From assembly GCA_016793305.1 (NCBI GenBank), contig JAEUHU010000029.1, positions 1 to 40,653 of the forward strand: DNA of 40,653 bases, written 5' to 3'. Shown here piece after piece: positions 16,427 through 28,646 of this stretch. Position 1 is the stretch's first letter. Each line of letters begins with the position of its first letter. The position numbers were made by a program, and so were the translations under genes. The DNA comes from Planctomycetota bacterium (GTDB lineage: Bacteria > Planctomycetota > UBA1135 > UBA2386). The notes below the pieces were generated by a model, which saw only the letters and a program-made list of their open reading frames with translations, did not search any database and was not told where the DNA came from.

Positions 16427-18199
16427 TCAGCCGTCGAGGCAGAGGCGCTTCAGCTTCTCGTAGAGGGTCGAGACGGCGATGCCCAGCAGCTGAGCCGTCT
16501 TCTGGCGGTTGCCGCCGGTTCGCTGCAGCACGTCGAGGATGTGCTGGCGTTCGAGCTCCTCCAGTGTCGCGATCGGCGTGCTCTCGGGAGTGTCTGTCCC
16601 GGAGCCGAAGCCGGGCGGCAGGTGGCGCGGAGCGATCGGATGGTTGCCGGCCTGCGCGGTCGCCGACTCGAGCACGAGGCGCAGCTCGCGCAGATTGCCG
16701 GGCCAGCTGTGGTCGGCGAGCAGGCGCTTCGCTCGATCGGTCAGCAGGCGCGGCGAGCCGTCGGGGTTGCTGCCCATCTCGGACAGGTAGAGTTCGGCGA
16801 GCGACAGCACGTCCCGGCGGTCACTGCGCAGCGGCGGCACGTCGATGCGGTGGGGCTCCAGCCACTCGTACAACGTGCGGTCGAGCTGTTCGGGCTGGGC
16901 GGTCGCCGTCGCCACGACCAGCACTGGTGGCGCCGTCTCGTCGGGGCTCACCGAGGCCAGGGCCTCCACGAGGCGCTGCTGCAGCGCGGTCGTCAGATGG
17001 TCCACCCGATCCAGGAACAAGGTGCCCCCGCGCGTCTTGGCGAGCAACCCGCCGGGATCTCGCGCGTCGCCGAACAGATCGCGTTCGTGGCGGACGGCGG
17101 GCACGTGCGCTGCGCACCAGGGAGTGAACACCGCCTGGCGGCGCATTCCTTCGGCGTGCAGGTAACGAGCGAGGTCCTCGCGTTCGGTGCCTTCTTCGCC
17201 GACCAGCCACAGCGGCTCCGGGCTGCTGGCGCGGTTGCGCAGCTCGCTGCGGATCGACTGCAGGCGGTTGCTCAGCAGCAGCGCGTTGTGGGTGGCAGTG
17301 CCGTGGAAGCGCAGGCGCTTCACTTCGTCGCGGAGGCGCAGCCGTTCGGTCGTCTCCTGCAGCCGATGCCAGACGACGTTGCCGAGCGACTGGGCCAGGC
17401 GCAGCAGATCCTGGCCGTCCGGCGCGTCGGGCATCGGCCCTTGCAGCACCATCAACCCTTCGCCGTTGCGGCCGAGCGGCGTCAGCAGGCGGTCGATCTC
17501 GCGGCCTTGCTCGCGGGTCGTGACGATGTGTGGGCGAGCGATGCGCCGTGCCTCGCGCAGCACCGATTCGGGCAGGTGCGTCGCAGTGGCCTCGCCTGGC
17601 GGGGTGTGTGCGGCCAGCAGCTCGAGGCTGCCGCCGTTCGAGAACCGACCGACGAAGCCGGCCCGCCGCATGGTCAGGTTGCGCGCCAGGTCGAGCAGGG
17701 GTTCGGCGGCGTCGCGCAGGTCGCCGAGGTCGGCGAACGTCCACTCGATGCGATCCAGCACCTGCACCGCCGCGGCGGCGGCGGAATGTGCGGTTGCGGT
17801 TGGGTGCTCGTCGTCCGAGATCTGCCGCGACAACACCACGGTCTGGTGGTCGTTGGTGACCACGGGGGTGGCCTGTTCGCGCCGCTCGAGGATCAGGCGC
17901 GTCAGGCCGATCTCGAGCACCTGACCCGGGCGGAGCACCCCTTGGCGGAGCGGCTTGCCGTCGAGCACTGCTGGGTTGCTGCCGAGGTCGCGGAAGCGCA
18001 GTTGGCCGTCGACCCATTCGAGGTGCAGGTGCTTGCGGCTGACCGTCGGATCGCGCAGCACGATCGTGCAATCCTGCCCGCGTCCGACGGTCCAGCGGTC
18101 CCCGCGGAGGGTGATCGTGCGAACCGTGCCATCGCCGAGGATCAGCAGCCGGAAGTCGGCCGGCGTTGGGTTCCCTGGTGGTGGCGCGGACTCGGTCAT
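16427..18199 (-). CDS. FHA-domain, sigma-54-activator-like regulator with degenerate AAA+ site
   Basis: This 590-residue protein begins with an FHA phosphothreonine-binding domain (about residues 15-105; VGRGQ, TVSRKHLHLEW, DLGSNP). A GAF-like region follows (about 140-290). The AAA+ module is related to bacterial enhancer-binding proteins, and a Fis-type helix-turn-helix closes the protein (GGNRQKTAQLLGIAVSTLYEKLKRL). The AAA+ site is broken. Walker A reads GEEGTERE (334-341) with Arg340 for Lys, Walker B reads LFLDRV with Arg398 after Asp397, and the sigma-54-contacting GAFTGA loop is absent (FGDARDPGGLLAKTRGG). It keeps the DNA-binding end and the phosphopeptide sensor, so it may act as an ATP-independent repressor or scaffold. 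ATG at 18197-18199 precedes the FHA domain. It diverges from the DUF1444-like gene. Confidence 0.88.
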   Translation of the reverse strand: MTESAPPPGNPTPADFRLLILGDGTVRTITLRGDRWTVGRGQDCTIVLRDPTVSRKHLHLEWVDGQLRFRDLGSNPAVLDGKPLRQGVLRPGQVLEIGLTRLILERREQATPVVTNDHQTVVLSRQISDDEHPTATAHSAAAAAVQVLDRIEWTFADLGDLRDAAEPLLDLARNLTMRRAGFVGRFSNGGSLELLAAHTPPGEATATHLPESVLREARRIARPHIVTTREQGREIDRLLTPLGRNGEGLMVLQGPMPDAPDGQDLLRLAQSLGNVVWHRLQETTERLRLRDEVKRLRFHGTATHNALLLSNRLQSIRSELRNRASSPEPLWLVGEEGTEREDLARYLHAEGMRRQAVFTPWCAAHVPAVRHERDLFGDARDPGGLLAKTRGGTLFLDRVDHLTTALQQRLVEALASVSPDETAPPVLVVATATAQPEQLDRTLYEWLEPHRIDVPPLRSDRRDVLSLAELYLSEMGSNPDGSPRLLTDRAKRLLADHSWPGNLRELRLVLESATAQAGNHPIAPRHLPPGFGSGTDTPESTPIATLEELERQHILDVLQRTGGNRQKTAQLLGIAVSTLYEKLKRLCLDG

Positions 18200-18221
18200 G
18201 TTCCCGTCGCGAGTCTCCGGA

Positions 18222-18274
18222 AATCGGAGGGTCGTTGCAAGGGCTTCGTGAAGACGTCGAGAATCGGAGGGTCG
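18222..18274. repeat. Two copies of a 13-bp direct repeat, 40-bp period
   Basis: The 13-mer AATCGGAGGGTCG occurs perfectly at 18222-18234 and again at 18262-18274, exactly 40 bp apart start to start, which is about four helical turns. Both copies lie 23-75 bp upstream of the FHA-regulator start codon in the intergenic region shared with the divergent DUF1444-like gene. Same-face direct repeats in this position fit an operator bound by a dimer or by cooperating dimers, perhaps the neighbouring regulator itself. Binding is inference. Confidence 0.6.
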
Positions 18275-18426
18275 AGGTTGCGCTCGCCGATGCGGCACAT
18301 ACTCTCCCACCGCGGGTCGAACACGGAGTCGAGTTTTCGTCGCGGGCAACTCCCCCAGTTGGATGCCACCGGTCTGGATTCCCAGTTCGGGTTCCACCGG
18401 CTCGGCGCACATCTCGCCTTCAGCCA

Positions 18427-18448
18427 TGGTATCGAGGCGCCGATACCA
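18427..18448 (+). promoter_or_regulatory. 8-bp perfect inverted repeat abutting the DUF1444-like start codon
   Basis: TGGTATCG (18427-18434) and CGATACCA (18441-18448) are perfect reverse complements around a 6-bp loop. The right arm ends six bases before the ATG at 18455, in the place a Shine-Dalgarno sequence would occupy, and no other ribosome-binding site is visible. It may be an RNA hairpin that limits translation of the DUF1444-like gene, or a DNA operator. Confidence 0.5.
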
Positions 18449-18454
18449 CGATCC

Positions 18455-19321
18455 ATGTGGCTCTGGGTCGTGCTCGGCTGGTGCGTCTGTGCGGTCGGTG
18501 CAGCGGTCGTGCATCACCGCGTGCGTCGTGTCGAGCAGCCGTTCTCCCCGGAAGTCGCGGCGTTCCTGTTGCGCTTCGAGAACGAGCTGGCCGAATCGCA
18601 CCCGCAGGTCGACTACCTGGGCCTGCTGCCGGATCGCTTCGCCTGCCTGTTGCGGGTCGACGGCCAGGAGACGGTCGTCGGGCTGCACGAGGCGTTCCGC
18701 CACGCGGAAGCGTTCCCCGACGCCTTCTCACGCATGGTTGCGCGACTGTTGGCCGACGTGCGCGAGATCGGGCTGAGCCACGTCGAGGATGTCGACTTCG
18801 CGGCCGCCGCGACGCAGCTGCTGCCGCAGGTTCGGCATCGGGACTGGCTCGCCGCGCGCGGCGCCTTCGGCGACTCGGGGCTCGTGCACACGCCGCTGAA
18901 CGACGAACTGGTGGTCGTCTACGTGATCGACACCACGAGCAGCATGACGTTCGTGTGCCGCGAGCATCAGAAGCGCTGGCGCAAGTCCGTCGAGGATCTG
19001 CACCGGCTCGCGCTCGGCAACTTGGCGCGGCGGGGTGCTGCCGGCCTCACACAGCGGCCGCGCGACGAGGCGACGGTGCTGCAGACCGGCGATGGCTATG
19101 ACGCCGCGCGGGTCCTGCTGCTGGAGGCGCAGGAGGGCCTGCTGGTCGCTGTGCCGGATCGTGACACGCTGTGGGTCGGTCCCGAGCAGGGCCAGGATCT
19201 CGCGAGCCTGATGGCGACCACCGCCGAACTCGCCGAGCAGGCACCACACCCCGTCTCGTCGCAGGTCTACCGGGTCAAGGACGGCCAGCTCGCACCGCTG
19301 CCAGCTCGTTCGGAATCGTGA
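18455..19321 (+). CDS. DUF1444 (YtpQ-like) family protein with N-terminal membrane segment
   Basis: This 288-residue protein opens with a single hydrophobic segment (MWLWVVLGWCVCAVGAAVV), probably an anchor. The remainder resembles DUF1444/YtpQ proteins, including LPDRFACLLRVDG, LLPQVRHRDWL, and the distinctive PLNDELVVVYVIDTTSSMTFV followed by a Leu-rich helix. Family function is unknown. The ATG at 18455 is the only plausible start in frame and is preceded by an 8-bp inverted repeat. It is divergent from the FHA-regulator gene, and its last 47 bp overlap the end of the convergent gene on the other strand. Assignment is by motif memory and would need a profile search. Confidence 0.7.
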   Translation: MWLWVVLGWCVCAVGAAVVHHRVRRVEQPFSPEVAAFLLRFENELAESHPQVDYLGLLPDRFACLLRVDGQETVVGLHEAFRHAEAFPDAFSRMVARLLADVREIGLSHVEDVDFAAAATQLLPQVRHRDWLAARGAFGDSGLVHTPLNDELVVVYVIDTTSSMTFVCREHQKRWRKSVEDLHRLALGNLARRGAAGLTQRPRDEATVLQTGDGYDAARVLLLEAQEGLLVAVPDRDTLWVGPEQGQDLASLMATTAELAEQAPHPVSSQVYRVKDGQLAPLPARSES

Positions 19322-20132: not shown

Positions 20133-23120
20133 TCAGCGGTTGCCGGTCGGCGGGCGCGGCGTCGGCTCGGCGGCCGGCTTGCCGGCGGTCAGCTGGACCT
20201 TCTGATCGCCCGACAGGGTGATCGGCTGGGCCACTTGCTCGCGGTTGCGCACCGTCAGCAGCAGGAGGTGGCGGCCCGGCGCGATCGCGTCGAAGCGGAA
20301 CGAACCGTCTTGCAGGCGGGCGCTGAAGCTGCGGTTCTGCCGCAGCCACTCGGCCAGGTTCTCCGGCATCTGCTCGAGGCCGGGCAGCAGCTGCACCCGG
20401 CCGACGAGGTCTGCAGCGTTCACCCCGTCGGCGACCACCGTTCCCTCGATGGTGCAGGTTTGGACGTGGATCGCGACTTCGGCCACTGCGTCGGCGAACA
20501 CCTGGATCGCCTGTTCGTGCAGTGCGCCGCCGCGGGGGCTGGACGTGACGCGCAGCTGGTAGCTGCCGGCCGGCACCTTCTCGACCTTGAACTGGCCGGT
20601 CGCCGACACCAGTCCACCCAGGTTGCGATTGCCCATGCCGCCGAAGCCGCCGCGACCGCGGCCACCGCCGGGGGCGGCCTGGCCGGCATCGCCTTCTGCC
20701 ACGAGTTCGATCATCAGGCCTTCTGCCGGCCGCCCGTTGTTGGTCACGCTGCCTTGCACGGTGCCGAGCTGTGGCCGTGTCACCGTCAGGTCGAGGCGGG
20801 TCTCCTGGCCACCGGTGACGACCGCGTCCGCGGGCAGCTGGCCAGCCAGGAACTGCGGCATCAGTTCGCGCATCAGGTCCTGCGGGGCCCCGATCCAGCT
20901 GCGTACCAGGTACTCGCCGGGTGCGAGGTTCTCGAGGCGGTAACTGCCGTCGGCCGCGACCTCGGCGCTGGCGAACGGTCCATTGCCGCCGCCGCCACCA
21001 CCGCCGCCGCCCTGGCGGCCGCGGCCCATCATCGCGCCGAGCCCCTGCCCGAGCGGCACCGCGGCGACCCGCGCCGTAGCGATCTCTGCGTCGCCGAGCC
21101 CGCGCACCTTGCCGGTGATGCTGCCGAGCGCGCCGAGGCGCAACTCGACGGCGGAGCGATCGGCGGCCAGCTCGAACGGTTCGGTGCGAGCGTCGGCGTG
21201 GCCGCGGGCCTGGGCCTCGAGCCGGTAGGTGCCAAGAGGCACATGCTTGAACACGAAGGCCCCGTCGTCGTCCGTGGTGGCCTCGAGCTGCAACTGCGTG
21301 CCCATGGCCATGCGCTGGAACTCGCGTGCCATGCCGCCGAAGTCCTGGGGCTGGTTGCCGCCGCCGTTGCGGCCGCGACCGCCCAGACCGTTGTCGAGGG
21401 CCGACGGTGTGCGCAGCTGGACCCGGGCACCAGCGACGGCATTTCCGTCCTGGTCGACGACCGCGCCCGACACGAAGAAACCGCCGTGCAGCATCACCTG
21501 CAGTTCGGGGGCGCGCAGGCCGGCGCGGACCTCGAGCTCCGCCGAGCGGTAGCGTGCGTGGTCCGGCGACTGCACCTGCACTTCGTAGATGCCTTCCTGC
21601 AGCCCCGTCGCCTGGAACCGGCCGTCGGCGTGCTTGGTCGGACGGTCGAGCTCGTTGCCACCTCGTCCGCCCTGGCCGTCGTCTGGTCCTCGGCCGCCCC
21701 CCTGGCCGCCGTCCTGACCGGGCCGGCCGCCGCCCGGTCGCGCGCCTGCGAACTGCTCACGCAGGCTGCCCAGCTGCTGGCGCAGCTGCGCGCGTTCCTC
21801 CTCGCCGAGGTTCGGATCGCGCATGCGCTCCATCAACGCGCCGACATCGACGTCGGCCTGGCCTGGGGCAGGGAGACCGCGCAGGCGCACGGCACGGAAC
21901 GCGAACAAGGTCACCAGCTCGCCGTCGCCGTCCTTGACCACGCCGTCGATGCGCAGGCCGTCCTGCATGGTCAGCTCCAGCGGTCGGCCGAGCTTCGGAT
22001 CGATCGCTTCGACCCGCAGGTGCAGGTAGCCGTTGGCGTCGACATCGAGTCGCATCGCGGCTCCCGGCAAGTGCTCCAGGAAGAACTGCCCCTTCTCGTC
22101 GGTGGTGGTGCGGTGTTCGCGGCCGCCGCCAGGGTTGGCGCCGGGACCGCCTCGTCCGCCGTTGCCGCCGCGCGGCGGCCCGTCGTTGCCGGCACCGTTC
22201 GGGCGGCCGCCTTCGGAACGCATCGCCACGTTGGCCTTGGCGATCGGTTCGCCGCGCTCGTTGCGCACGGTGCCCGACACCTCGTAGCCCGGGCCGAGCC
22301 GGATGTCGGCCACCTCGACCACGCGGTCCTCTTCGACCACGAACGTCGCCGAGCGCCCTTCGGTGTGCATCTTCGCGACCGCGGTCAGCGACCAGTCCCC
22401 GTTCGCCGCGTGCGGCCGCCGGTAGAAGCCGTTGTTGTCGGTGGTGATCGGCGGCGTCGTGCGATCCCGATCGCGCGCGAAGCGTTGCGGGTTGCCGTTC
22501 TCCGGTTGCAGGCGCAGCTCGGCGTTGGCGATGCCGTTGCCGTCGAGGTCGGTGACCCGGCCGCGCACCTCGCCGCCGTTGCCGAGCATCAGGTCGCCGA
22601 GATCCACTTCGGCCGTGACGGTGCCGACGTCCTTGTCGAACGTGCCCGGCGCGAAGTGCTCGTGGGCGACCTGCAGGTTCACGCGCAGGTTGCGGAAGGT
22701 CTGGCCCTGGAAGGCGAACCGCCCGGACGCGTCGGTCGTCACCGGGTCGGGCACCCGGCGCTGCCGGTTCTGCCCGCCGCCGCGAGGCCCACCGCGGCCG
22801 AAGTCGAGCCACACGGTGGCGTTGGGGACGCCGTGCGACGACTTGTCGACCACCCGGCCGCGTAGCAAGACTTCGGTGCGTTCGTCCGCGGGGCCCGCAC
22901 CGCCGCCACCGAGCTCGGCGGCCGAGCGCTCGCTGGCCAGGTCCCCCTCGCTGGTCTCGACCGATGCGGCAGGCGTCGGGTCCACCAGATCCTCTTCGTC
23001 CGCCGAACTCCATCGCCCGATGGGCACCGCCGGGTCGGCGAGCAGCTGCGGGATGGCGATCGCGCCGGCGACGAGCAGCAAGGCGGCAGCAGCGAGGAGC
23101 AGGAGTTGGTTCTTGTGCAT
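20133..23120 (-). CDS. Secreted multi-module carboxypeptidase-regulatory-like protein
   Basis: This 995-residue protein starts with a signal or anchor segment (NQLLLLAAAALLLVAGAIAI). It then carries about eight Ig-like carboxypeptidase-regulatory-type modules. Their first strands can be followed by eye: LLRGRVVDKSSHGVPNA, VRGRVTDLDGNGIANA, VSGTVRNERGEPIAKA, IDGVVKDGDGELVTL, VSGAVVDQDGNAVAGA, ITGKVRGLGDAEIATA, VQGSVTNNGRPAEGL and IEGTVVADGVNAADL. Long Gly/Arg/Asn/Gln-rich loops are inserted between strands, including a nine-Gly run. Such arrays are common in planctomycete surface proteins and are thought to be structural or adhesive. I place the start at ATG 23118-23120. The frame is open to 23255, but the extra residues precede the signal segment. 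It lies 141 bp downstream of the propeller-like pair on the same strand, so co-transcription is possible but not shown. Confidence 0.85.
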   Translation of the reverse strand: MHKNQLLLLAAAALLLVAGAIAIPQLLADPAVPIGRWSSADEEDLVDPTPAASVETSEGDLASERSAAELGGGGAGPADERTEVLLRGRVVDKSSHGVPNATVWLDFGRGGPRGGGQNRQRRVPDPVTTDASGRFAFQGQTFRNLRVNLQVAHEHFAPGTFDKDVGTVTAEVDLGDLMLGNGGEVRGRVTDLDGNGIANAELRLQPENGNPQRFARDRDRTTPPITTDNNGFYRRPHAANGDWSLTAVAKMHTEGRSATFVVEEDRVVEVADIRLGPGYEVSGTVRNERGEPIAKANVAMRSEGGRPNGAGNDGPPRGGNGGRGGPGANPGGGREHRTTTDEKGQFFLEHLPGAAMRLDVDANGYLHLRVEAIDPKLGRPLELTMQDGLRIDGVVKDGDGELVTLFAFRAVRLRGLPAPGQADVDVGALMERMRDPNLGEEERAQLRQQLGSLREQFAGARPGGGRPGQDGGQGGGRGPDDGQGGRGGNELDRPTKHADGRFQATGLQEGIYEVQVQSPDHARYRSAELEVRAGLRAPELQVMLHGGFFVSGAVVDQDGNAVAGARVQLRTPSALDNGLGGRGRNGGGNQPQDFGGMAREFQRMAMGTQLQLEATTDDDGAFVFKHVPLGTYRLEAQARGHADARTEPFELAADRSAVELRLGALGSITGKVRGLGDAEIATARVAAVPLGQGLGAMMGRGRQGGGGGGGGGNGPFASAEVAADGSYRLENLAPGEYLVRSWIGAPQDLMRELMPQFLAGQLPADAVVTGGQETRLDLTVTRPQLGTVQGSVTNNGRPAEGLMIELVAEGDAGQAAPGGGRGRGGFGGMGNRNLGGLVSATGQFKVEKVPAGSYQLRVTSSPRGGALHEQAIQVFADAVAEVAIHVQTCTIEGTVVADGVNAADLVGRVQLLPGLEQMPENLAEWLRQNRSFSARLQDGSFRFDAIAPGRHLLLLTVRNREQVAQPITLSGDQKVQLTAGKPAAEPTPRPPTGNR

Positions 23121-23261
23121 GCAGCGGATCCGGCGGGTGCCGAAAACGAGGGCGCCATTACGTCCATCGCACGGCAACGCCGACAGCCATGGCCTGTAAC
23201 AGCTTCGCACTGTGACCGGGCCGAGACGTTCGCCCGGGGCCAAGCGGTCTCGCAAGCAGGC

Positions 23262-24593
23262 TCAGGGGCCGACCAGGAACGGGCGTGGCGCCGTGGCACC
23301 GAGCACCCCGTCGGTCGAGACGAACCCTACTTGCACCAGGGCGGTGGGCAAGCCGACCAGCCCCGGGTTCGACGTGGCGAGGCTGATCGCCCCGGTGGCA
23401 TCGAGCTGCGCCAGCACTTCGACCGTCGTCGAGGCGAGCAGGCCAGCTTCCCACCACAGTGGCTGTTCGTAGCCACCGAGGAACATCGGCATCGGCCCGA
23501 CCGGGTTCTGCAGGTCGAACACCAGCAGCGCCATGCCGTTGGCCGGACCGCCGGTGACATCGAACGAGAACGGGCCGCTCGGCAGTGGCGATGGTCCGGA
23601 CAGGGCGACGGAAGCCTCCGCCGTGTCGACCGAGGACAGCAGGTTCGTGCTGCCGAAGTCGGTGCCGTGCACCAGCATCGCGCCGTTGCGTGGCTGGAAC
23701 GGTTCGAACACGCCGAAGCCGGCGCCGGGAACGAACTGCAGGGTCGCAGGGCTCACCGGGCTGCCCACGTAGTCGAGCAGTGGGGCGCCCAGCAAGGGCT
23801 GGGACGAGCCGACGTCGTGGATCTCGCGCACGTTGTTCTGCATCCAGTCGACGTAGAAGACGTCGCCGTCGTCGTCGACCGCCAAGTCGCTCGCGGCATC
23901 CAGGCCGCCGAGCACGAGCGCAGCGCTGTTCGCTCCGAGCACCACTTGGTTCGCGATCGCCTGGTCGATCGTCGCGCGTGGGAAACGCAGCAGTTCGGCG
24001 GTGCCGGGCGGGGTCGGGAAGGCGAGGCTCGAGGTTGCGTAGAGCACGTCGCCGTTCGCCAGCAACGCCACCGGACCCGAGGCGCCAGGCAAGCTCGCGA
24101 TCGACCGCCAGCTGCCGGTCGTGAGGTCGAGCGCGACCAGGTCGTTGTCGGGCGTGGCGAAGCCGCCGAGCTTGGCCGACAGCAGCGCCGTCTGCGGCGT
24201 CAGCAGCACGGCGTCGTAGTTGTACGGCACCGTCGCCAGCGGCGCGCTCGGTGCCGGGCCCGCGAGCGGCACCAGCCAGAGGTGGTTGTTGCTGTTCTCG
24301 CCGAACAGCACGTGCTGGCTGCCCACCGGAATCGTGAACGAGCCGAACACGAACGACGACAAGCCGAGCAACGTGCGCACCGGCTGGCCCGGAGCGTGCA
24401 GCTGCAGTTCGGTGCCCGTGCACAGCACGACGCCAGCCGACGTCTGCAGCACGGCACTGGCACCCGCAGGCAGCGGCGTGTTCGTCCGCAGGTAGCCGGC
24501 AGGGGCCTGCTGGGCGGTGAGCAACGCGGTGCCGAGCAGGATCGGCAGAAGGGTCGTGGCGCTGTGCGCGAGGCAAGAAGGCATGGGAGGCAT
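23262..24593 (-). CDS. Secreted propeller-like protein, paralogue of the upstream riboswitch-controlled gene
   Basis: This 443-residue protein begins with a signal peptide (TTLLPILLGTALLTAQQ). Blade-like repeats typical of beta-propellers follow, for example ASDLAVDDDGDVFYVDWMQ. The stretch LLRFPRATIDQAIANQVVLG matches LLRFPAAAVQAAIAGGTLSIG in the neighbouring gene, so the two are tandem paralogues. It ends with an about 90-residue module (LWWEAGLLASTTVEVLAQLD, then PGLVGLPTALVQVGFVS) like that of its paralogue. It begins nine bases after its upstream paralogue's stop and is therefore probably translated from the same cobalamin-riboswitch-controlled mRNA. ATGs at 24593 and 24584 are both possible starts. 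No enzyme motif is visible. It could bind a ligand such as a corrinoid at the cell surface, which is inference from context. Confidence 0.8.
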   Translation of the reverse strand: MPPMPSCLAHSATTLLPILLGTALLTAQQAPAGYLRTNTPLPAGASAVLQTSAGVVLCTGTELQLHAPGQPVRTLLGLSSFVFGSFTIPVGSQHVLFGENSNNHLWLVPLAGPAPSAPLATVPYNYDAVLLTPQTALLSAKLGGFATPDNDLVALDLTTGSWRSIASLPGASGPVALLANGDVLYATSSLAFPTPPGTAELLRFPRATIDQAIANQVVLGANSAALVLGGLDAASDLAVDDDGDVFYVDWMQNNVREIHDVGSSQPLLGAPLLDYVGSPVSPATLQFVPGAGFGVFEPFQPRNGAMLVHGTDFGSTNLLSSVDTAEASVALSGPSPLPSGPFSFDVTGGPANGMALLVFDLQNPVGPMPMFLGGYEQPLWWEAGLLASTTVEVLAQLDATGAISLATSNPGLVGLPTALVQVGFVSTDGVLGATAPRPFLVGP

Positions 24594-24602
24594 GGGTGCG
24601 GG

Positions 24603-26009
24603 TCAGGGCAACAGCTGGGAGGAGATGGAGTTGGTGGTCGCGATCGCGCCGTTCGGCGCCTGGATCGCGGCCTGCAAGGTGATGGCGACGTCGAGGCCAC
24701 CCGCGTACGGCAGTGGCACGACCGCGACGCCGCCGCTGTCGACGACGAACGGCAGCACGAACTGGATCTGGCTCGGGTCGAAGCCGAGCCACCACGCAGG
24801 ACCGCCCGTCCAGACGAACGGGGCCTCCGGCGCGCCGGTGCCAGGCGCGATCAGCACGAGGCCGGTGCCGTTCGCCGCGGCATGGTGCACGACCAGCTGC
24901 GTGCCACTCGTGATCGAGGTCGTGGGGGTGAGCACGGCGGTCGGTCGTTCTGGGTGCACCACGATCTGCTCGACGATGGTCCAGTAGTCGCTGCAGGTGA
25001 CGTGCAGCGACGGCGCGTGGCTCGCCGGTTGGTGCGGAGCGAACGGTGCGCCGCCACCGCCGCGCCAGTGCAGCCCCGTGACGTAGCGGTTCGTCCCGGC
25101 GGCGAACCAGGTCTCGACGGCGTCCAGGCCTCCTGGCGCGGTCCGTCGCACCTCGCCGCTCGCCGGATCACTGACGTAGACGCGGTCCGCGTCGTCGACC
25201 GCGAGGTCGTAGATGCCGGCGAAGCCGGTGCCGATCTGGCTCACCTGGCCGATCGACAACGTGCCGCCGGCGATCGCCGCCTGCACGGCGGCGGCGGGGA
25301 ACCTCAGCAAGCGCGCCGCCCCAGGTGGAGGCGGCACGATCGCACCGAGTTCGGCGAGGATCAGGTCGCCGTTGCCGAACCGGTCGAGTGGCGCCGACGG
25401 CCCGACCAGCTGCAGCAGGAGTCGCGGGGCCACGCCTGGTTCGACGAGCCAGAGCCCGCTGTTGCTGCCGCCGGCCGGCCAGGTCGGATTCGCCTGCACC
25501 AACAGCCGGTCGTTCGCGAGCGGCTCGACCGCGAACGTGTTGGCGAGTCCTTGGAACGAGCCCAGCAGGGCGCCGCTGGCCTCGTCGAGCACATGCACCG
25601 TGCCGCTCCGCAACCCGCCCACGTAGAGGCGGCCGCCGCCGTCGGCTCGCGCGCAGAACGCGATGTCCTCCTTGCTCAGGTCGAACATCGGGCGCTGGCC
25701 GGCCACCAGGCTGCCATCCGTCGCGAACAGCTGCCGCCGGTGCACGACGTAGTGTTGGCCAAGACCGCGCGGCAGCACGCTTCGCACCAGGCTGGCCTGG
25801 TGGCGGGTCGTGAACGAGGTCGTCGCCGCGAACCCGTCGTCGGCGATGGTCTGGCCCGGCAGCGTCGCGAGCAGCATCGCCGTGGCCAGCGCTGCCGCGG
25901 CTGCCGACGAGGGGGGCGACGCGACAAATCGCGTCGGAACGAACGAAGAACCACCCTGCGGTCGCGCGGCAACGCGCACACCGCGGGCACGGAGCCCGGC
26001 ACCTGGCAT
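24603..26009 (-). CDS. Secreted propeller-like protein downstream of a cobalamin riboswitch
   Basis: This 468-residue protein has a long basic N-region and a hydrophobic signal segment (AAAAALATAMLLATLPGQ). Blade-like repeats follow: GGRLYVGGLRSGTVHVLDE, NDRLLVQANPTWPAG and IYDLAVDDADRVYVSDPASGE. The terminal module is AWWLGFDPSQIQFVLPFVVD with GGLDVAITLQAAIQAP. No catalytic motif, metal site or TonB box was recognised. ATG 26007-26009 has a strong ribosome-binding site (GGAGGTGG) seven bases upstream and lies about 65 nt after the riboswitch. Control by B12 implies a role in corrinoid acquisition, or a product needed only when B12 is scarce. The surface cobalamin-binding propeller BtuG of Bacteroides is a functional analogy, not a demonstrated homologue. 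Confidence 0.83.
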   Translation of the reverse strand: MPGAGLRARGVRVAARPQGGSSFVPTRFVASPPSSAAAAALATAMLLATLPGQTIADDGFAATTSFTTRHQASLVRSVLPRGLGQHYVVHRRQLFATDGSLVAGQRPMFDLSKEDIAFCARADGGGRLYVGGLRSGTVHVLDEASGALLGSFQGLANTFAVEPLANDRLLVQANPTWPAGGSNSGLWLVEPGVAPRLLLQLVGPSAPLDRFGNGDLILAELGAIVPPPPGAARLLRFPAAAVQAAIAGGTLSIGQVSQIGTGFAGIYDLAVDDADRVYVSDPASGEVRRTAPGGLDAVETWFAAGTNRYVTGLHWRGGGGAPFAPHQPASHAPSLHVTCSDYWTIVEQIVVHPERPTAVLTPTTSITSGTQLVVHHAAANGTGLVLIAPGTGAPEAPFVWTGGPAWWLGFDPSQIQFVLPFVVDSGGVAVVPLPYAGGLDVAITLQAAIQAPNGAIATTNSISSQLLP

Positions 26010-26012
26010 GTT

Positions 26013-26037
26013 CCACCTCCGGTGTCTCGAGCACCGG
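26013..26037 (-). promoter_or_regulatory. Ribosome-binding site and adjoining hairpin of the riboswitch-controlled gene
   Basis: On the minus strand GGAGGTGG (26013-26020) lies seven bases before the ATG. The first two G bases are also the end of a perfect 6-bp stem (CCGGTG/CACCGG, 26019-26037, 7-nt loop). A second perfect 6-bp stem lies just upstream (CGGTCC/GGACCG, 26052-26067). These hairpins, between the aptamer and the start codon, are the likely expression platform. No U-run follows either stem, so control of translation initiation fits better than termination. Confidence 0.6.
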
Positions 26038-26069
26038 GTCGGAGCAGTCGACGGTCCGGTCGGACCGGC

Positions 26070-26275
26070 CCGACGCGGATGTTCTGGCTTCCGGGGTCTG
26101 GCCTACTGGTCCGCCTTCCCAGCTCGCCCATCGGGGCTCGCCAGTGGCATAGAGGACGGTCGTACCCGGTGACAGCTGCGGGACAGCGCCGGAGTCTCAC
26201 CGGCTTCCCCGCGAAGGGCAGGTGGCAGGGTAGCTGCGGGGCGCACCGGCACAAGAGTCTGGGGACGAGGAGAAC
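26070..26275 (-). promoter_or_regulatory. Cobalamin (B12) riboswitch aptamer
   Basis: Read on the minus strand, the segment contains the conserved core GCCGGTGAGACTCCGGC, then GCTGTCCCGCAGCTGT (26172-26204). Further 3' it has GCCACTGG, GCTGGGAAGGCGGACCAGTAGG and GAAGCCAGAAC (26081-26150). These are in the order and spacing of the AdoCbl-type aptamer, with CCACTGG pairing to CCAGTAGG across a variable arm. Boundaries are approximate because the P1 strands were not modelled. It is oriented toward the secreted propeller-like gene starting at 26009 and away from the QueG-like gene. Binding of a cobalamin should lower expression of the downstream gene. It occupies most of the 445-bp gap between 26010 and 26454; the remainder, besides the hairpins noted, shows no gene. 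Confidence 0.9.
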
Positions 26276-26390
26276 AGCCTCGCGGCGGACCAGGTTTCGA
26301 CCACGTCAGGGGCACGACGGAGGTCCATGCACGAGACCACCGGGAACGGGGTCTTGCACAGCGGCCATCGGGAAACGAAAACGTCGCTCC

Positions 26391-26412
26391 GGCCCGCCTT
26401 GCCCGGCGGGCC
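26391..26412. other. 8-bp GC hairpin in the gap before the QueG-like gene
   Basis: GGCCCGCC (26391-26398) and GGCGGGCC (26405-26412) are perfect reverse complements with a 6-nt loop, 42 bp upstream of the QueG-like start codon. There is no T-run on either strand. It may be part of the leader of the + strand mRNA or lie between divergent promoters. Confidence 0.3.
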
Positions 26413-26454
26413 GCCCATCCGCCGATCCCGGCACCGCTCCAGGTCCCGTCAGCC

Positions 26455-27228
26455 ATGCGTTCGGAACTGCTTGCCAGCGCCCAGGAAATCGCCGTCCGGG
26501 GCGGGCTCAACCTGTTCGGCCTGGTCGACGCGTCGCGGTTCGACGGCTGCTCCCCGTGCGAGCAGCGCTTCGCGTCGCGGCACCCCCGGTGTGGCACGCT
26601 CGTGGTGCTCGGCAGCGGCGGGCGCGCCTTCTGGCAGCAGTACGCGGCATCGTTCGCATCCGGCGCCAGCGCCGACGGCCAGGACCTCTACACCGCGGCC
26701 ACGGTGCGCGCGGTCGTCGCCCGGCTGCACGAAGGTGGCGTTGCCTGCGAATCGGTGCTGCTCGCCGCGTCGCCGAAGGTCAACGCCAACCGGCTCGGGG
26801 AATGCGCTGGCTTCGGCACCGTGTCGCCGGTCTCGGGGCTGCTCGTCCATCCCGAGTTCGGACCGTGGGTGCGGGTGCGCGCCGCCCTGCTCCTCGACGG
26901 GCGACCGTTCGGCGTCGTGCCCGATGCGGCGATCTCCGATCGTTACCAGCCGTGCTGTTCGTGCAGCAAGCCGTGCGTCACGGCGTGTCCCGCGGGGGTG
27001 CACGACGGGCGTGGCAACCAGGATCTCGGTGCGTGCGCCTCGCATCGGCACGATGGCGGCTGCGAGCATGTCTGCGCGTCGCGCCTCGCGTGCCCGGTCG
27101 GCAGCCAGCATCGCGACGAAGCCGGCGAAGACGCGCACCGCCACGCGTTCCGTCTCGCGACCATGCAGCGTTGGTTCGGCTTCGGCGTCTGGCGGCTCGT
27201 GCCGACGTTCCTGCGCCATGGGCGGTGA
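26455..27228 (+). CDS. QueG/CblC-like iron-sulfur protein with atypical second Cys cluster
   Basis: This 257-residue protein resembles the cobalamin-dependent epoxyqueuosine reductase QueG in its middle. NANRLGECAGFGTVSPVSGLLVHPEFGPWVRV parallels the QueG stretch with Ala-Gly-Leu-Gly and HPEFGxW. A ferredoxin-type cluster follows (C167, C168, C170, C174, C178-Pro). The second cluster differs from QueG: the Cys set C194, C203, C207 and C213-Pro lies in CASHRHDGGCEHVCASRLAC. The protein is also shorter than QueG (usually 340-380) and lacks the C-terminal repeats. QueG shares its cobalamin fold with the B12-processing protein CblC/MMACHC. Next to a B12 riboswitch and a BtuF-like gene, reductive processing of cobalamin is as likely as tRNA modification. 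It overlaps the next gene by 11 bp. Confidence 0.68.
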   Translation: MRSELLASAQEIAVRGGLNLFGLVDASRFDGCSPCEQRFASRHPRCGTLVVLGSGGRAFWQQYAASFASGASADGQDLYTAATVRAVVARLHEGGVACESVLLAASPKVNANRLGECAGFGTVSPVSGLLVHPEFGPWVRVRAALLLDGRPFGVVPDAAISDRYQPCCSCSKPCVTACPAGVHDGRGNQDLGACASHRHDGGCEHVCASRLACPVGSQHRDEAGEDAHRHAFRLATMQRWFGFGVWRLVPTFLRHGR

Positions 27229-27982
27229 CAACCAGTGGGGGCCGCGCCGCCTCGTCAGCCTGGTGCCGAGCACGACCGAGAGCGTCTGTGCGTTCGGCGC
27301 GCGCGATCGGCTGGTCGGCTGTACGCGCTACTGCACGCATCCGGTGGGCGTCCTCGATGGAGTCGAGCGACTCGGCGGCACCAAGAACCCCGATCGCGAG
27401 AGCGTCTTGGCGCTGGCTCCGGATCTGGTGCTCGGCAACGCCGAGGAGAACCGGCCCGAGGATCTCGCGTGGCTGCAACAGCGCGTGCCGGTGTTGGTGC
27501 AGACGCCGCGTCGGATCGGCGAAGCGGTCCAGGGGCTCGCCGAACTGGCCGAGGTGCTGGGCACCGGCGAAGCGTGTGCGGCGGCGGTCGCCCAGCAGGT
27601 CGACGCGGCGCTGCGTAGGGTAGAGCAGGGCCGCGTCGGGCCGCGCGTCTACTACGCGATCTGGCGCAAGCCTTGGATGAGTGTCTCGGCCGACACGTTC
27701 GTGCACGACGTGCTGGCGCAGGCGGGCGCCCGGAACGTCTGCGCCGACGAGCCCGCGCGGTATCCCGAGGTGTCGCCGGCGGTCGCGGTCGCGCGCGCGG
27801 TCGACCGGGTGCTGTTGGCCAGCGAGCCGTGGGCGTTCGACGAAGCCCAGCGGGCCGAGCTGGCACAGCGAGGGGACTTCGGCGACGCGCGGCTCGTGCT
27901 GTGCGACGGTCGCGACTTCTGCTGGCACGGTGTGCACATGGCGATCGGGTTGCCGAGGGCGTTCGCGCTGCTCTCTGCTTGA
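27218..27982 (+). CDS. BtuF-like cobalamin-binding protein without signal peptide
   Basis: This 254-residue protein has the periplasmic-binding fold with a single helical backbone, as in BtuF. Motifs are RRLVSLVPSTTESVCAFG, VGCTRYCTHP, LGGTKNPDRESVLALAPDLV, and GNAEENRPEDLAWL followed by a run of vertical helices (VQTPRRIGEAVQGLAELAEVLG). No signal peptide or lipobox precedes the domain, so it is predicted to be cytoplasmic unless the start is misplaced. This subfamily is widespread and annotated only as cobalamin-binding. It overlaps the QueG-like gene by 11 bp, which suggests joint expression and possible hand-over of a corrinoid between the two. No BtuC or BtuD gene is nearby. Confidence 0.8.
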   Translation: MGGDNQWGPRRLVSLVPSTTESVCAFGARDRLVGCTRYCTHPVGVLDGVERLGGTKNPDRESVLALAPDLVLGNAEENRPEDLAWLQQRVPVLVQTPRRIGEAVQGLAELAEVLGTGEACAAAVAQQVDAALRRVEQGRVGPRVYYAIWRKPWMSVSADTFVHDVLAQAGARNVCADEPARYPEVSPAVAVARAVDRVLLASEPWAFDEAQRAELAQRGDFGDARLVLCDGRDFCWHGVHMAIGLPRAFALLSA

Positions 27983-28013: not shown

Positions 28014-28646
28014 ATGAGCGACTCCAAACCGCGCGCACTGCCCCTGCTGCTGGTCGCCGCGGCCTTGACGTTGGTGGTCACCCTGCTCCGGTTGGTCGGC
28101 GAGCGGCAAGGGTGGGATCCGAACTGGTTCTCCACCGAGCCGGGCAGCCCGCTGAATCCGTTCGGCATCGTCTGGCTGGTGCCGGTGTTCGGCTTCCTGC
28201 TCGGCCGGCGGCTCGCGGCCGCCGGCAAACCGCCGTTCGTGGCGTCGTTCTTCGTGCCGGCGTTCGGCTTCGTCGCGATGGTCGGTGCCGGTGTGTTCGT
28301 GTTGCACCACTTCGACGGCGACGAGCTGAAGGCGGCGATGCAGTGGCTGTGGATCGGTTCGCCGTGTCTCGCCCTGCTGGCGCTGTTCGCCTGGCCGCGC
28401 GCGTTCTTCGCCACGCTCGCCTACGGGCTGATGGCGCGGGTGCCGGTGGCCCTGGTGCAGTACTTCGACGTCGAGCACGGGTGGCAGACGCACTACGGCA
28501 AGGTGCATCCGAAGCTGGTCGGCATGGATGCCGCGTCGCGCCACCTGTTCCTGGCGATGGCCCAGGCGACGCAGTGGCTGCCGTTCACGATCCTGGCCGG
28601 CACCGCGTGTGCGGCCCTCGGGGCCGCGACCGTGCGGCGCAGCTGA
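28014..28646 (+). CDS. Unrecognised polytopic membrane protein
   Basis: This 210-residue protein has about six membrane segments: ALPLLLVAAALTLVVTLLRLV, FGIVWLVPVFGFLLG, FFVPAFGFVAMVGAGVFVLHH, WLWIGSPCLALLALFAWP, AFFATLAYGLMARVPVALVQYF and LPFTILAGTACAALGAA. Two polar loops carry Trp- and His-rich patches (GERQGWDPNWFSTEPGSPLNP and EHGWQTHYGKVHP). No family was recognised. It begins 31 bp after the BtuF-like gene on the same strand, so it may belong to the B12-linked transcript, but nothing in its sequence says so. Confidence 0.7.
   Translation: MSDSKPRALPLLLVAAALTLVVTLLRLVGERQGWDPNWFSTEPGSPLNPFGIVWLVPVFGFLLGRRLAAAGKPPFVASFFVPAFGFVAMVGAGVFVLHHFDGDELKAAMQWLWIGSPCLALLALFAWPRAFFATLAYGLMARVPVALVQYFDVEHGWQTHYGKVHPKLVGMDAASRHLFLAMAQATQWLPFTILAGTACAALGAATVRRS

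What the first reader, a model, noticed from the sequence alone, without database searches (positions are those of the whole stretch)
23262..27982. Cobalamin-riboswitch-linked locus pairing secreted propeller-like proteins with QueG/CblC-like and BtuF-like proteins
A clear B12 aptamer on the minus strand controls a secreted, propeller-like protein with no recognised enzyme function. Its tandem paralogue follows after nine bases. Divergent from the aptamer is a coupled pair: an iron-sulfur protein related to QueG (same cobalamin-binding fold as CblC) and a BtuF-like protein without export signal. No TonB receptor, BtuCD or B12-synthesis enzyme is present. B12 riboswitches normally control uptake, synthesis or B12-independent isoenzymes, so control of a secreted propeller is unexpected. 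In Bacteroides the surface propeller BtuG binds cobalamin with extreme affinity, so these proteins could be an independent BtuG-like corrinoid capture system. The riboswitch and gene order are seen, the propeller fold is inferred from repeats, and corrinoid binding is a hypothesis.
Basis: partly seen in the sequence, partly recalled or inferred. Interest (0 to 1): 0.82.

Follow-up and report, generated by a model that had tools for sequence, protein, structure and literature searches.

The report
B12-controlled secreted propeller proteins, Planctomycetota
In a group of B12-dependent Planctomycetota bacteria, a vitamin B12-sensing RNA switch sits directly in front of a secreted propeller-shaped protein of unknown function, which is most likely an independently evolved B12-catching protein.

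Summary
A cobalamin riboswitch (RF00174, 73.3 bits, E 2.3e-16) lies on the minus strand at 26210-26077 and leads into two tandem secreted proteins (468 and 443 aa). Both are predicted (pLDDT 84.7 and 93.6) as beta-propellers plus a C-terminal beta-sandwich. They look six-bladed and SMP-30/NHL-like rather than seven-bladed BtuG-like.

In 20 related genomes, all with one propeller locus, this riboswitch is directly upstream in 19; the twentieth is cut by a contig end. In ten it is the only cobalamin riboswitch found. All 20 have B12-using enzyme families; none has the CbiC synthesis marker, a BtuG-type PF16819 domain or DUF4465. A hairpin beside the ribosome-binding site recurs in 17 of 20 leaders, suggesting translational control.

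The QueG-like/BtuF-like pair is divergent, outside the riboswitch transcript, and less tightly linked. Of 16 other riboswitches in these genomes, 13 also precede secreted proteins. Best reading: a separately evolved corrinoid-capture family that works like BtuG but is not a member of it. Corrinoid binding is inferred, not shown.

The parts
26077..26210 (-). Cobalamin riboswitch aptamer core (RF00174, model positions 45-169 of 189)
   Evidence: 73.3 bits, E 2.3e-16
26019..26037 (-). Leader hairpin CCGGTG-CTCGAGA-CACCGG, likely expression platform
   Evidence: over 17 leaders 94.1% of cells pair, three cells with changes on both sides
26013..26018 (-). Shine-Dalgarno-like AGGTGG directly behind the hairpin, three bases before ATG 26009
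24603..26009 (-). Secreted propeller protein 1 (468 aa): signal peptide, predicted six-bladed propeller about residues 53-354, C-terminal beta-sandwich
23262..24593 (-). Secreted propeller protein 2 (443 aa): signal peptide, predicted six-bladed propeller about residues 29-325, C-terminal beta-sandwich; the more widely kept member
26455..27228 (+). QueG-like iron-sulfur protein (257 aa), divergent, not in the riboswitch transcript
   Evidence: canonical QueG found elsewhere in 18 of 20 related genomes
27218..27982 (+). BtuF-like protein without export signal (254 aa), overlaps the previous gene by 11 bases
28014..28646 (+). Small protein (210 aa, hydrophobic by eye) next in line, found in the same place in some relatives; relation to B12 unknown
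   Evidence: (no family above cut-off)

Best explanation
The two secreted proteins are B12-repressed, extracytoplasmic corrinoid-capture proteins of a B12-dependent, probably non-synthesising Planctomycetota. When cellular cobalamin is high, the aptamer binds it and a hairpin next to the ribosome-binding site keeps the propeller mRNA from being translated. When cobalamin is low, the propellers are made, exported by their signal peptides, and bind corrinoids outside the cytoplasm, handing them to an unlinked outer-membrane TonB receptor and an unlinked importer of the BtuF-BtuC-BtuD type. Shown here: the riboswitch, its linkage, the predicted fold, B12-using enzyme families with no CbiC, and in all 20 relatives TonB plug domains and a FecCD permease (mostly one). 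Inferred: direction of regulation, location, corrinoid binding and hand-over.
For: Riboswitch directly upstream of the propeller locus in 19 of 20 genomes, the twentieth cut by a contig end; the same RF00174 search rings in 8 of 14 control genomes. It is the only cobalamin riboswitch found in 10 of 20 genomes (these are MAG records whose completeness is not told). Where the propeller is away from the QueG-like gene (L002/L114, L020/L125) the riboswitch stays with the propeller. Recurring leader hairpin at the ribosome-binding site. MetH, MCM and PduO families in 20 of 20, CbiC in 0 of 20, with the CbiC search ringing in 7 of 14 controls. Predicted propellers plus sandwich. Of 35 riboswitches in the 20 genomes, 19 precede propellers, 10 another secreted family, 3 a secreted BtuF-like fusion, 1 a 102-aa gene that follows that fusion in L118 and L122, and 2 a DUF6580 gene and a TonB receptor.
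Against: No binding data. No sequence family links the propellers to any known corrinoid binder. The best full-length structural matches are SMP-30/NHL-type chains, a fold with many unrelated functions. BtuG chains rank lower in Foldseek with poor superposition (8blw rank 37 for propeller 1; 8bn0 and 8bmy ranks 27-28, rmsd about 9.5, for propeller 2). No BtuB, BtuCD or anchoring signal is linked. The two TonB receptors classified score best as haemin type, and the one permease classified scores best as BtuC, all below the curated cut-offs.
Confidence: 0.55

Rival explanations
1. The propellers are secreted enzymes or adhesins made under B12 shortage that do not bind corrinoids, for example a lactonase or hydrolase that frees B12 from bound forms or supplies another nutrient when B12-dependent enzymes fail.
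For: Best VIA-align matches are SMP-30/gluconolactonase, Drp35, strictosidine-synthase and sugar-dehydrogenase propellers, a fold that hosts many enzymes.
Against: Non-enzymes of the same fold (NHL domains, Pizza designs) score nearly as high in the same lists. Control by a B12 riboswitch in nearly every genome fits acquisition best. Catalytic residues were not examined here.
Confidence: 0.25
2. The locus is a larger B12-handling module, compatible with the best explanation: propellers capture corrinoid, and the QueG-like and BtuF-like proteins process it in the cytoplasm (reductive removal of the upper ligand, chaperoning).
For: QueG-like gene divergent from the riboswitch in 15 of 21 loci (window plus L001-L020) and convergent beside the propellers in two more (L017, L018). 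QueG and CblC are the profile's best PDB matches. The BtuF-like partner matches solved B12-binding proteins and is next to the QueG-like gene in the window and 11 of 20 loci. Canonical QueG is separate in 18 of 20 genomes, so this copy probably has another job.
Against: The pair is not under the riboswitch. The QueG-like gene is away from the propeller in L002 and L020. The BtuF-like gene is not next to it in L014-L018 and L020; L006, L007 and L010 end too soon to tell. No B12 context was recognised around distant relatives in seven loci read by eye, and no cobalamin riboswitch in six distant loci scanned (L021, L023, L024, L026, L031, L055). The CblC match is only E 0.022 over 24 positions.
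Confidence: 0.35
3. The propellers are true BtuG family members.
For: Both are predicted propellers, riboswitch-linked and secreted; BtuG and YncE chains appear among Foldseek matches, and a YVTN propeller (1l0q) heads the E-value list for protein 1.
Against: No PF16819 match in the proteins or in 20 genomes, no lipobox by eye in the window proteins, apparent six blades, no linked btuB. The BtuG authors found homologues only in Bacteroidetes among 313 gut strains (PMC6143338, passages seen).
Confidence: 0.03
4. The aptamer is a chance or decayed hit with no link to the propellers.
For: None found, apart from the leader not folding more stably than shuffles (z -0.44).
Against: E 2.3e-16; same place in 19 of 20 genomes; recurring leader hairpin with double-sided changes.
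Confidence: 0.01

Closest known systems
BtuG (Bacteroides surface B12-binding propeller; PF16819 per PMC13398666 is the propeller family next to DUF4465 genes)
   Same: Extracytoplasmic beta-propeller under a B12 riboswitch in a B12 scavenger (PMC6143338 and PMC10404256, passages seen).
   Different: BtuG is seven-bladed, a surface lipoprotein and encoded beside btuB. The present proteins look six-bladed, have plain signal peptides, a C-terminal sandwich and no linked transporter; no sequence-family match.
DUF4465/BtuJ and BtuH (B12 binders)
   Same: Exported B12-capture proteins, in B. theta in riboswitch-regulated loci; one tested DUF4465 binder is from Mucisphaera calidilacus, a planctomycete (phylum recalled) (PMC13398666: abstract, section 11 part 1 and section 16; PMC8941943: passages).
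   Different: DUF4465 has an augmented jellyroll fold. No PF14717 match in the 20 genomes.
SMP-30/gluconolactonase, NHL and designed Pizza propellers
   Different: Sequence identity 9-17% in those lists; no shared function shown.
QueG / reductive dehalogenase / CblC
   Same: The QueG-like neighbour is matched over the central region and has conserved cysteine clusters.
   Different: Far below the QueG curated cut-off (12.2 against 200 bits); a canonical QueG is encoded elsewhere in 18 of 20 genomes.

Membership tests
Cobalamin riboswitch RF00174 | Score above Rfam gathering threshold | tested here: met
   73.3 against 31.5 bits
Cobalamin riboswitch RF00174 | Lies in the leader of a gene, with a plausible expression platform | tested here: met
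   start codon 67 bases beyond the match, with a recurring hairpin at the Shine-Dalgarno
Cobalamin riboswitch RF00174 | Binds cobalamin and represses | not testable with these tools
   needs in-line probing or a reporter
BtuG | PF16819 (DUF5074) domain | tested here: not met
   Pfam at E 1: only weak Kelch/Cuticle hits in protein 2, nothing in protein 1; no match in 20 genomes, search ringing in 3 of 14 controls including Bacteroides
BtuG | Seven-bladed propeller | tested here: inconclusive
   about 23 strands in the propeller part of each model and best full-length matches to SMP-30/NHL/Pizza6 chains (their blade number recalled) point to six; Foldseek E-value lists are led by 1l0q (YVTN) and 9dta (WD40), with worse TM-scores or rmsd
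BtuG | Lipoprotein with surface export signal | tested here: not met
   no lipobox by eye in the window proteins; a loose pattern hits 2 of 38 and 8 of 117 homologues
BtuG | Encoded beside btuB | tested here: not met
   no TonB receptor in 29 of 31 window genes; none of the plug matches listed in relatives lies beside the propeller, the nearest being about 22 kb off in G005
BtuG | Under a B12 riboswitch | tested here: met
BtuG | Binds corrinoids | not testable with these tools
   no ligand docking or assay available
QueG (TIGR00276) | Above the equivalog cut-off of 200 bits | tested here: not met
   12.2 bits
BtuF/TroA-like (NF038402) | Above the subfamily cut-off of 30 bits | tested here: met
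   170.7 bits
BtuF (PRK03379 equivalog) | Above the equivalog cut-off of 234 bits and exported | tested here: not met
   50.5 bits; no signal peptide by eye

The most novel reading that the evidence does not exclude
This clade of Planctomycetota evolved its own set of riboswitch-controlled, exported corrinoid binders, separate from BtuG, BtuH and BtuJ: a six-bladed propeller-plus-sandwich pair, a roughly 335-aa LIC_13355-like protein, and a secreted BtuF-like protein with an N-terminal domain faintly like the transcobalamin C-terminal domain. The cobalamin regulon here would consist almost wholly of capture proteins rather than transporters.
Probability: 0.4. Interest if true: 0.75.

Novelty: new variant of a known kind. 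Interest (0 to 1): 0.62.

Why it matters
If right, extracellular B12 capture under riboswitch control arose more than once with unrelated propellers, and it gives a direct handle on how uncultured, B12-dependent Planctomycetota obtain the vitamin. It also gives function candidates to several hypothetical protein families, found without similarity to known binders, from their riboswitches alone.

Tried and rejected
Homology of the propellers to solved structures by sequence: mainly NHL/Pizza-type matches of about one blade. The 335-aa family had no PDB match. A kissing-loop partner for the leader hairpin: the script found GCTCG matches in the window but no consistent partner in the loci it reached, picked other hairpins in several, and stopped with an error at L017, so no claim is made. 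Folding the leader alone gave no unusual stability (z -0.44). In the pair count one measure, further pair types, was no better than shuffled (456 of 500). B12 context of the QueG-like family farther away: in 12 loci asked, the gene call was found in seven (five labelled proteobacterial, one Chloroflexi, one Planctomycetota) and nothing B12-like was recognised among neighbours read by eye, without a family search. A transcobalamin-like N-terminal domain in the riboswitch-linked BtuF-like fusion: DUF4430 E 0.016 in 1 of 3 members, below cut-off, and no useful PDB match; kept only as a lead. DUF4430 in transcobalamins: PMC4350170, passages seen. Plasmid records hold no relative of propeller 2. 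Literature: no paper holds both 'cobalamin riboswitch' and 'Planctomycet'; other searches listed nothing recognisable as this family, judged by titles and abstract starts.

Gene-call note: my codon-based caller put the start of propeller 1 at 25877; the Shine-Dalgarno and hairpin favour 26009. It also missed the QueG-like gene in L005 and L008, where one search was used.

Full report
What is there. The window holds one Rfam match above its cut-off, a cobalamin riboswitch on the minus strand at 26210-26077. The first gene after it is a 468-aa secreted protein starting at 26009, followed nine bases later by a 443-aa secreted protein. On the plus strand lie a QueG-like iron-sulfur protein and, overlapping it by 11 bases, a BtuF-like protein without a signal peptide. 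Because the aptamer is on the opposite strand, the riboswitch can act on the propeller transcript only.

The set compared. A scan with the QueG-like profile found 122 relatives in the genome collection, of which 80 were kept. I used the 20 best, L001-L020 (39-63% identity): 16 are titled Planctomycetota or Planctomycetia, one Candidatus Kuenenia, and three only 'bacterium'. One more Planctomycetota record (L078, 28%) was left out. All are draft MAG records; completeness is not told.

Conservation. In the 20 whole genomes RF00174 was found in 20, 35 matches in all, and in 10 there was only one. Searches with the two propeller profiles found one propeller locus in each of the 20; other matches in these genomes were weak and limited to the C-terminal region. 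Comparing coordinates, the riboswitch is directly upstream on the same strand in 19 of 20; in G001 the gene runs to a contig end, and in G013 the gene is cut at its far end. Both propellers occur in the window and in G001, G004, G011, G016, G017 and G018, propeller 1 first. G012 and G020 have the first type only; the other 12 have the second only.

Divergent arrangement. The QueG-like gene is divergent from the riboswitch in 15 of 21 loci (window and 14 others). The gap from aptamer to QueG-like start is 82 to 375 bases, except 1.8 kb in L009. L001 and L014 are cut at that side, L002 and L020 have the propeller on another contig with its own riboswitch, and L017 and L018 have the QueG-like gene convergent at the far end of the propellers. 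So the riboswitch goes with the propeller, not with the QueG-like pair.

Expression platform. I compared 20 leaders: the window's and one from each of 19 genomes. In 17 a hairpin of the type CGGCG-CGCAAGA-CGCCG was found by pattern; its stem is imperfect in L008. It is followed by AGGTGG exactly in 9 of the 17 and by variants in the others, and by ATG or GTG a few bases on in 16 of 17 (not L005). On the alignment 94.1% of cells pair, two pairs carry changes on both sides (three cells), and the covariation score exceeds all 500 shuffles; slid versions reach at most 70.6% and one such cell; one measure (further pair types) is no better than shuffled. Rows L005 and L008 look misaligned there and count against the structure. 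L017, L018 and L125 lack this motif; by eye they have other hairpins near the start. This suggests translational control; that B12 represses is taken from general knowledge of these riboswitches.

Physiology. The 20 genomes have the MetH B12 domain (20 of 20, though 17 score far lower than the other three), the methylmalonyl-CoA-mutase family (20 of 20), PduO adenosyltransferase (20 of 20), and no CbiC (0 of 20). This fits dependence on external corrinoids; one marker does not prove absence of synthesis. TonB plug domains occur in 20 of 20, one to five each, and FecCD permeases in 20 of 20, mostly one. The one permease classified scores best as BtuC and the two TonB receptors classified score best as haemin type, all below curated cut-offs. 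Read by eye, five of six permease contexts fetched show a binding protein, permease and ATPase together; in the sixth the contig ends after the permease.

Other riboswitch targets. The 16 remaining riboswitches precede a family of about 335 aa, secreted by eye, without Pfam match in the three members scanned (10), related to LIC_13355 lipoproteins (10 of 10 members, best E 1.1e-10, below cut-off in the member shown); a secreted Peripla_BP_2 protein with an extra N-terminal domain (3); a 102-aa gene (1); and a DUF6580 gene and a TonB receptor on one contig of G016 (2). That the regulon is dominated by exported non-transporter proteins supports the capture reading.

Comparison with what is known. 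BtuG, BtuH and BtuJ/DUF4465 are exported or surface B12 binders in riboswitch-regulated loci of B. theta (PMC6143338, PMC10404256, PMC8941943: passages seen; PMC13398666: abstract, section 11 part 1 of 2, section 16). The present proteins work, on the best reading, like BtuG, but fail its sequence family, lipoprotein and btuB-linkage features. No description of this family was found in the searches named under Tried and rejected.

Verdict. Real, conserved, and a new variant of riboswitch-controlled B12 acquisition, with the binding step still hypothetical.

Noticed in passing
L112, L116, L117, L119, L120, L121, L123, L126, L127, L128 (riboswitch-adjacent gene in each): A second cobalamin-riboswitch-controlled family of about 335 aa with signal peptides by eye, no Pfam match in three members scanned, related to LIC_13355 lipoproteins.
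   Followed up: partly
L115:547-1836, L118:5656-6885, L122:1711-3084: Riboswitch-controlled Peripla_BP_2 (BtuF-like) protein with an N-terminal domain faintly like DUF4430 of transcobalamins (E 0.016 in one of three).
   Followed up: partly
L117:1530-3437: Behind a cobalamin riboswitch and the 335-aa gene: two Diphthami_syn_2 proteins flanking a DUF6580 membrane protein.
   Followed up: no
L111 (G016:C518): Two cobalamin riboswitches, before a DUF6580 gene and a TonB receptor followed by a PduO-type adenosyltransferase; possibly from another organism binned with G016 (GC 0.652 against 0.677 in L016, not decisive).
   Followed up: partly
G001-G016 and G019 (MetH): The MetH activation domain scores about 42-144 bits in 17 genomes (two of them cut or partial) against 381-409 in G017, G018 and G020, so it looks divergent in most of the clade.
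   Followed up: no
window 20133-23255 (-): Large protein with about nine carboxypeptidase-regulatory-like stretches; a similar-looking large protein follows the propellers in many relatives.
   Followed up: no
window 16427-18703 (-): Protein with an FHA domain, a sigma-54 interaction domain and a Fis-type HTH.
   Followed up: no
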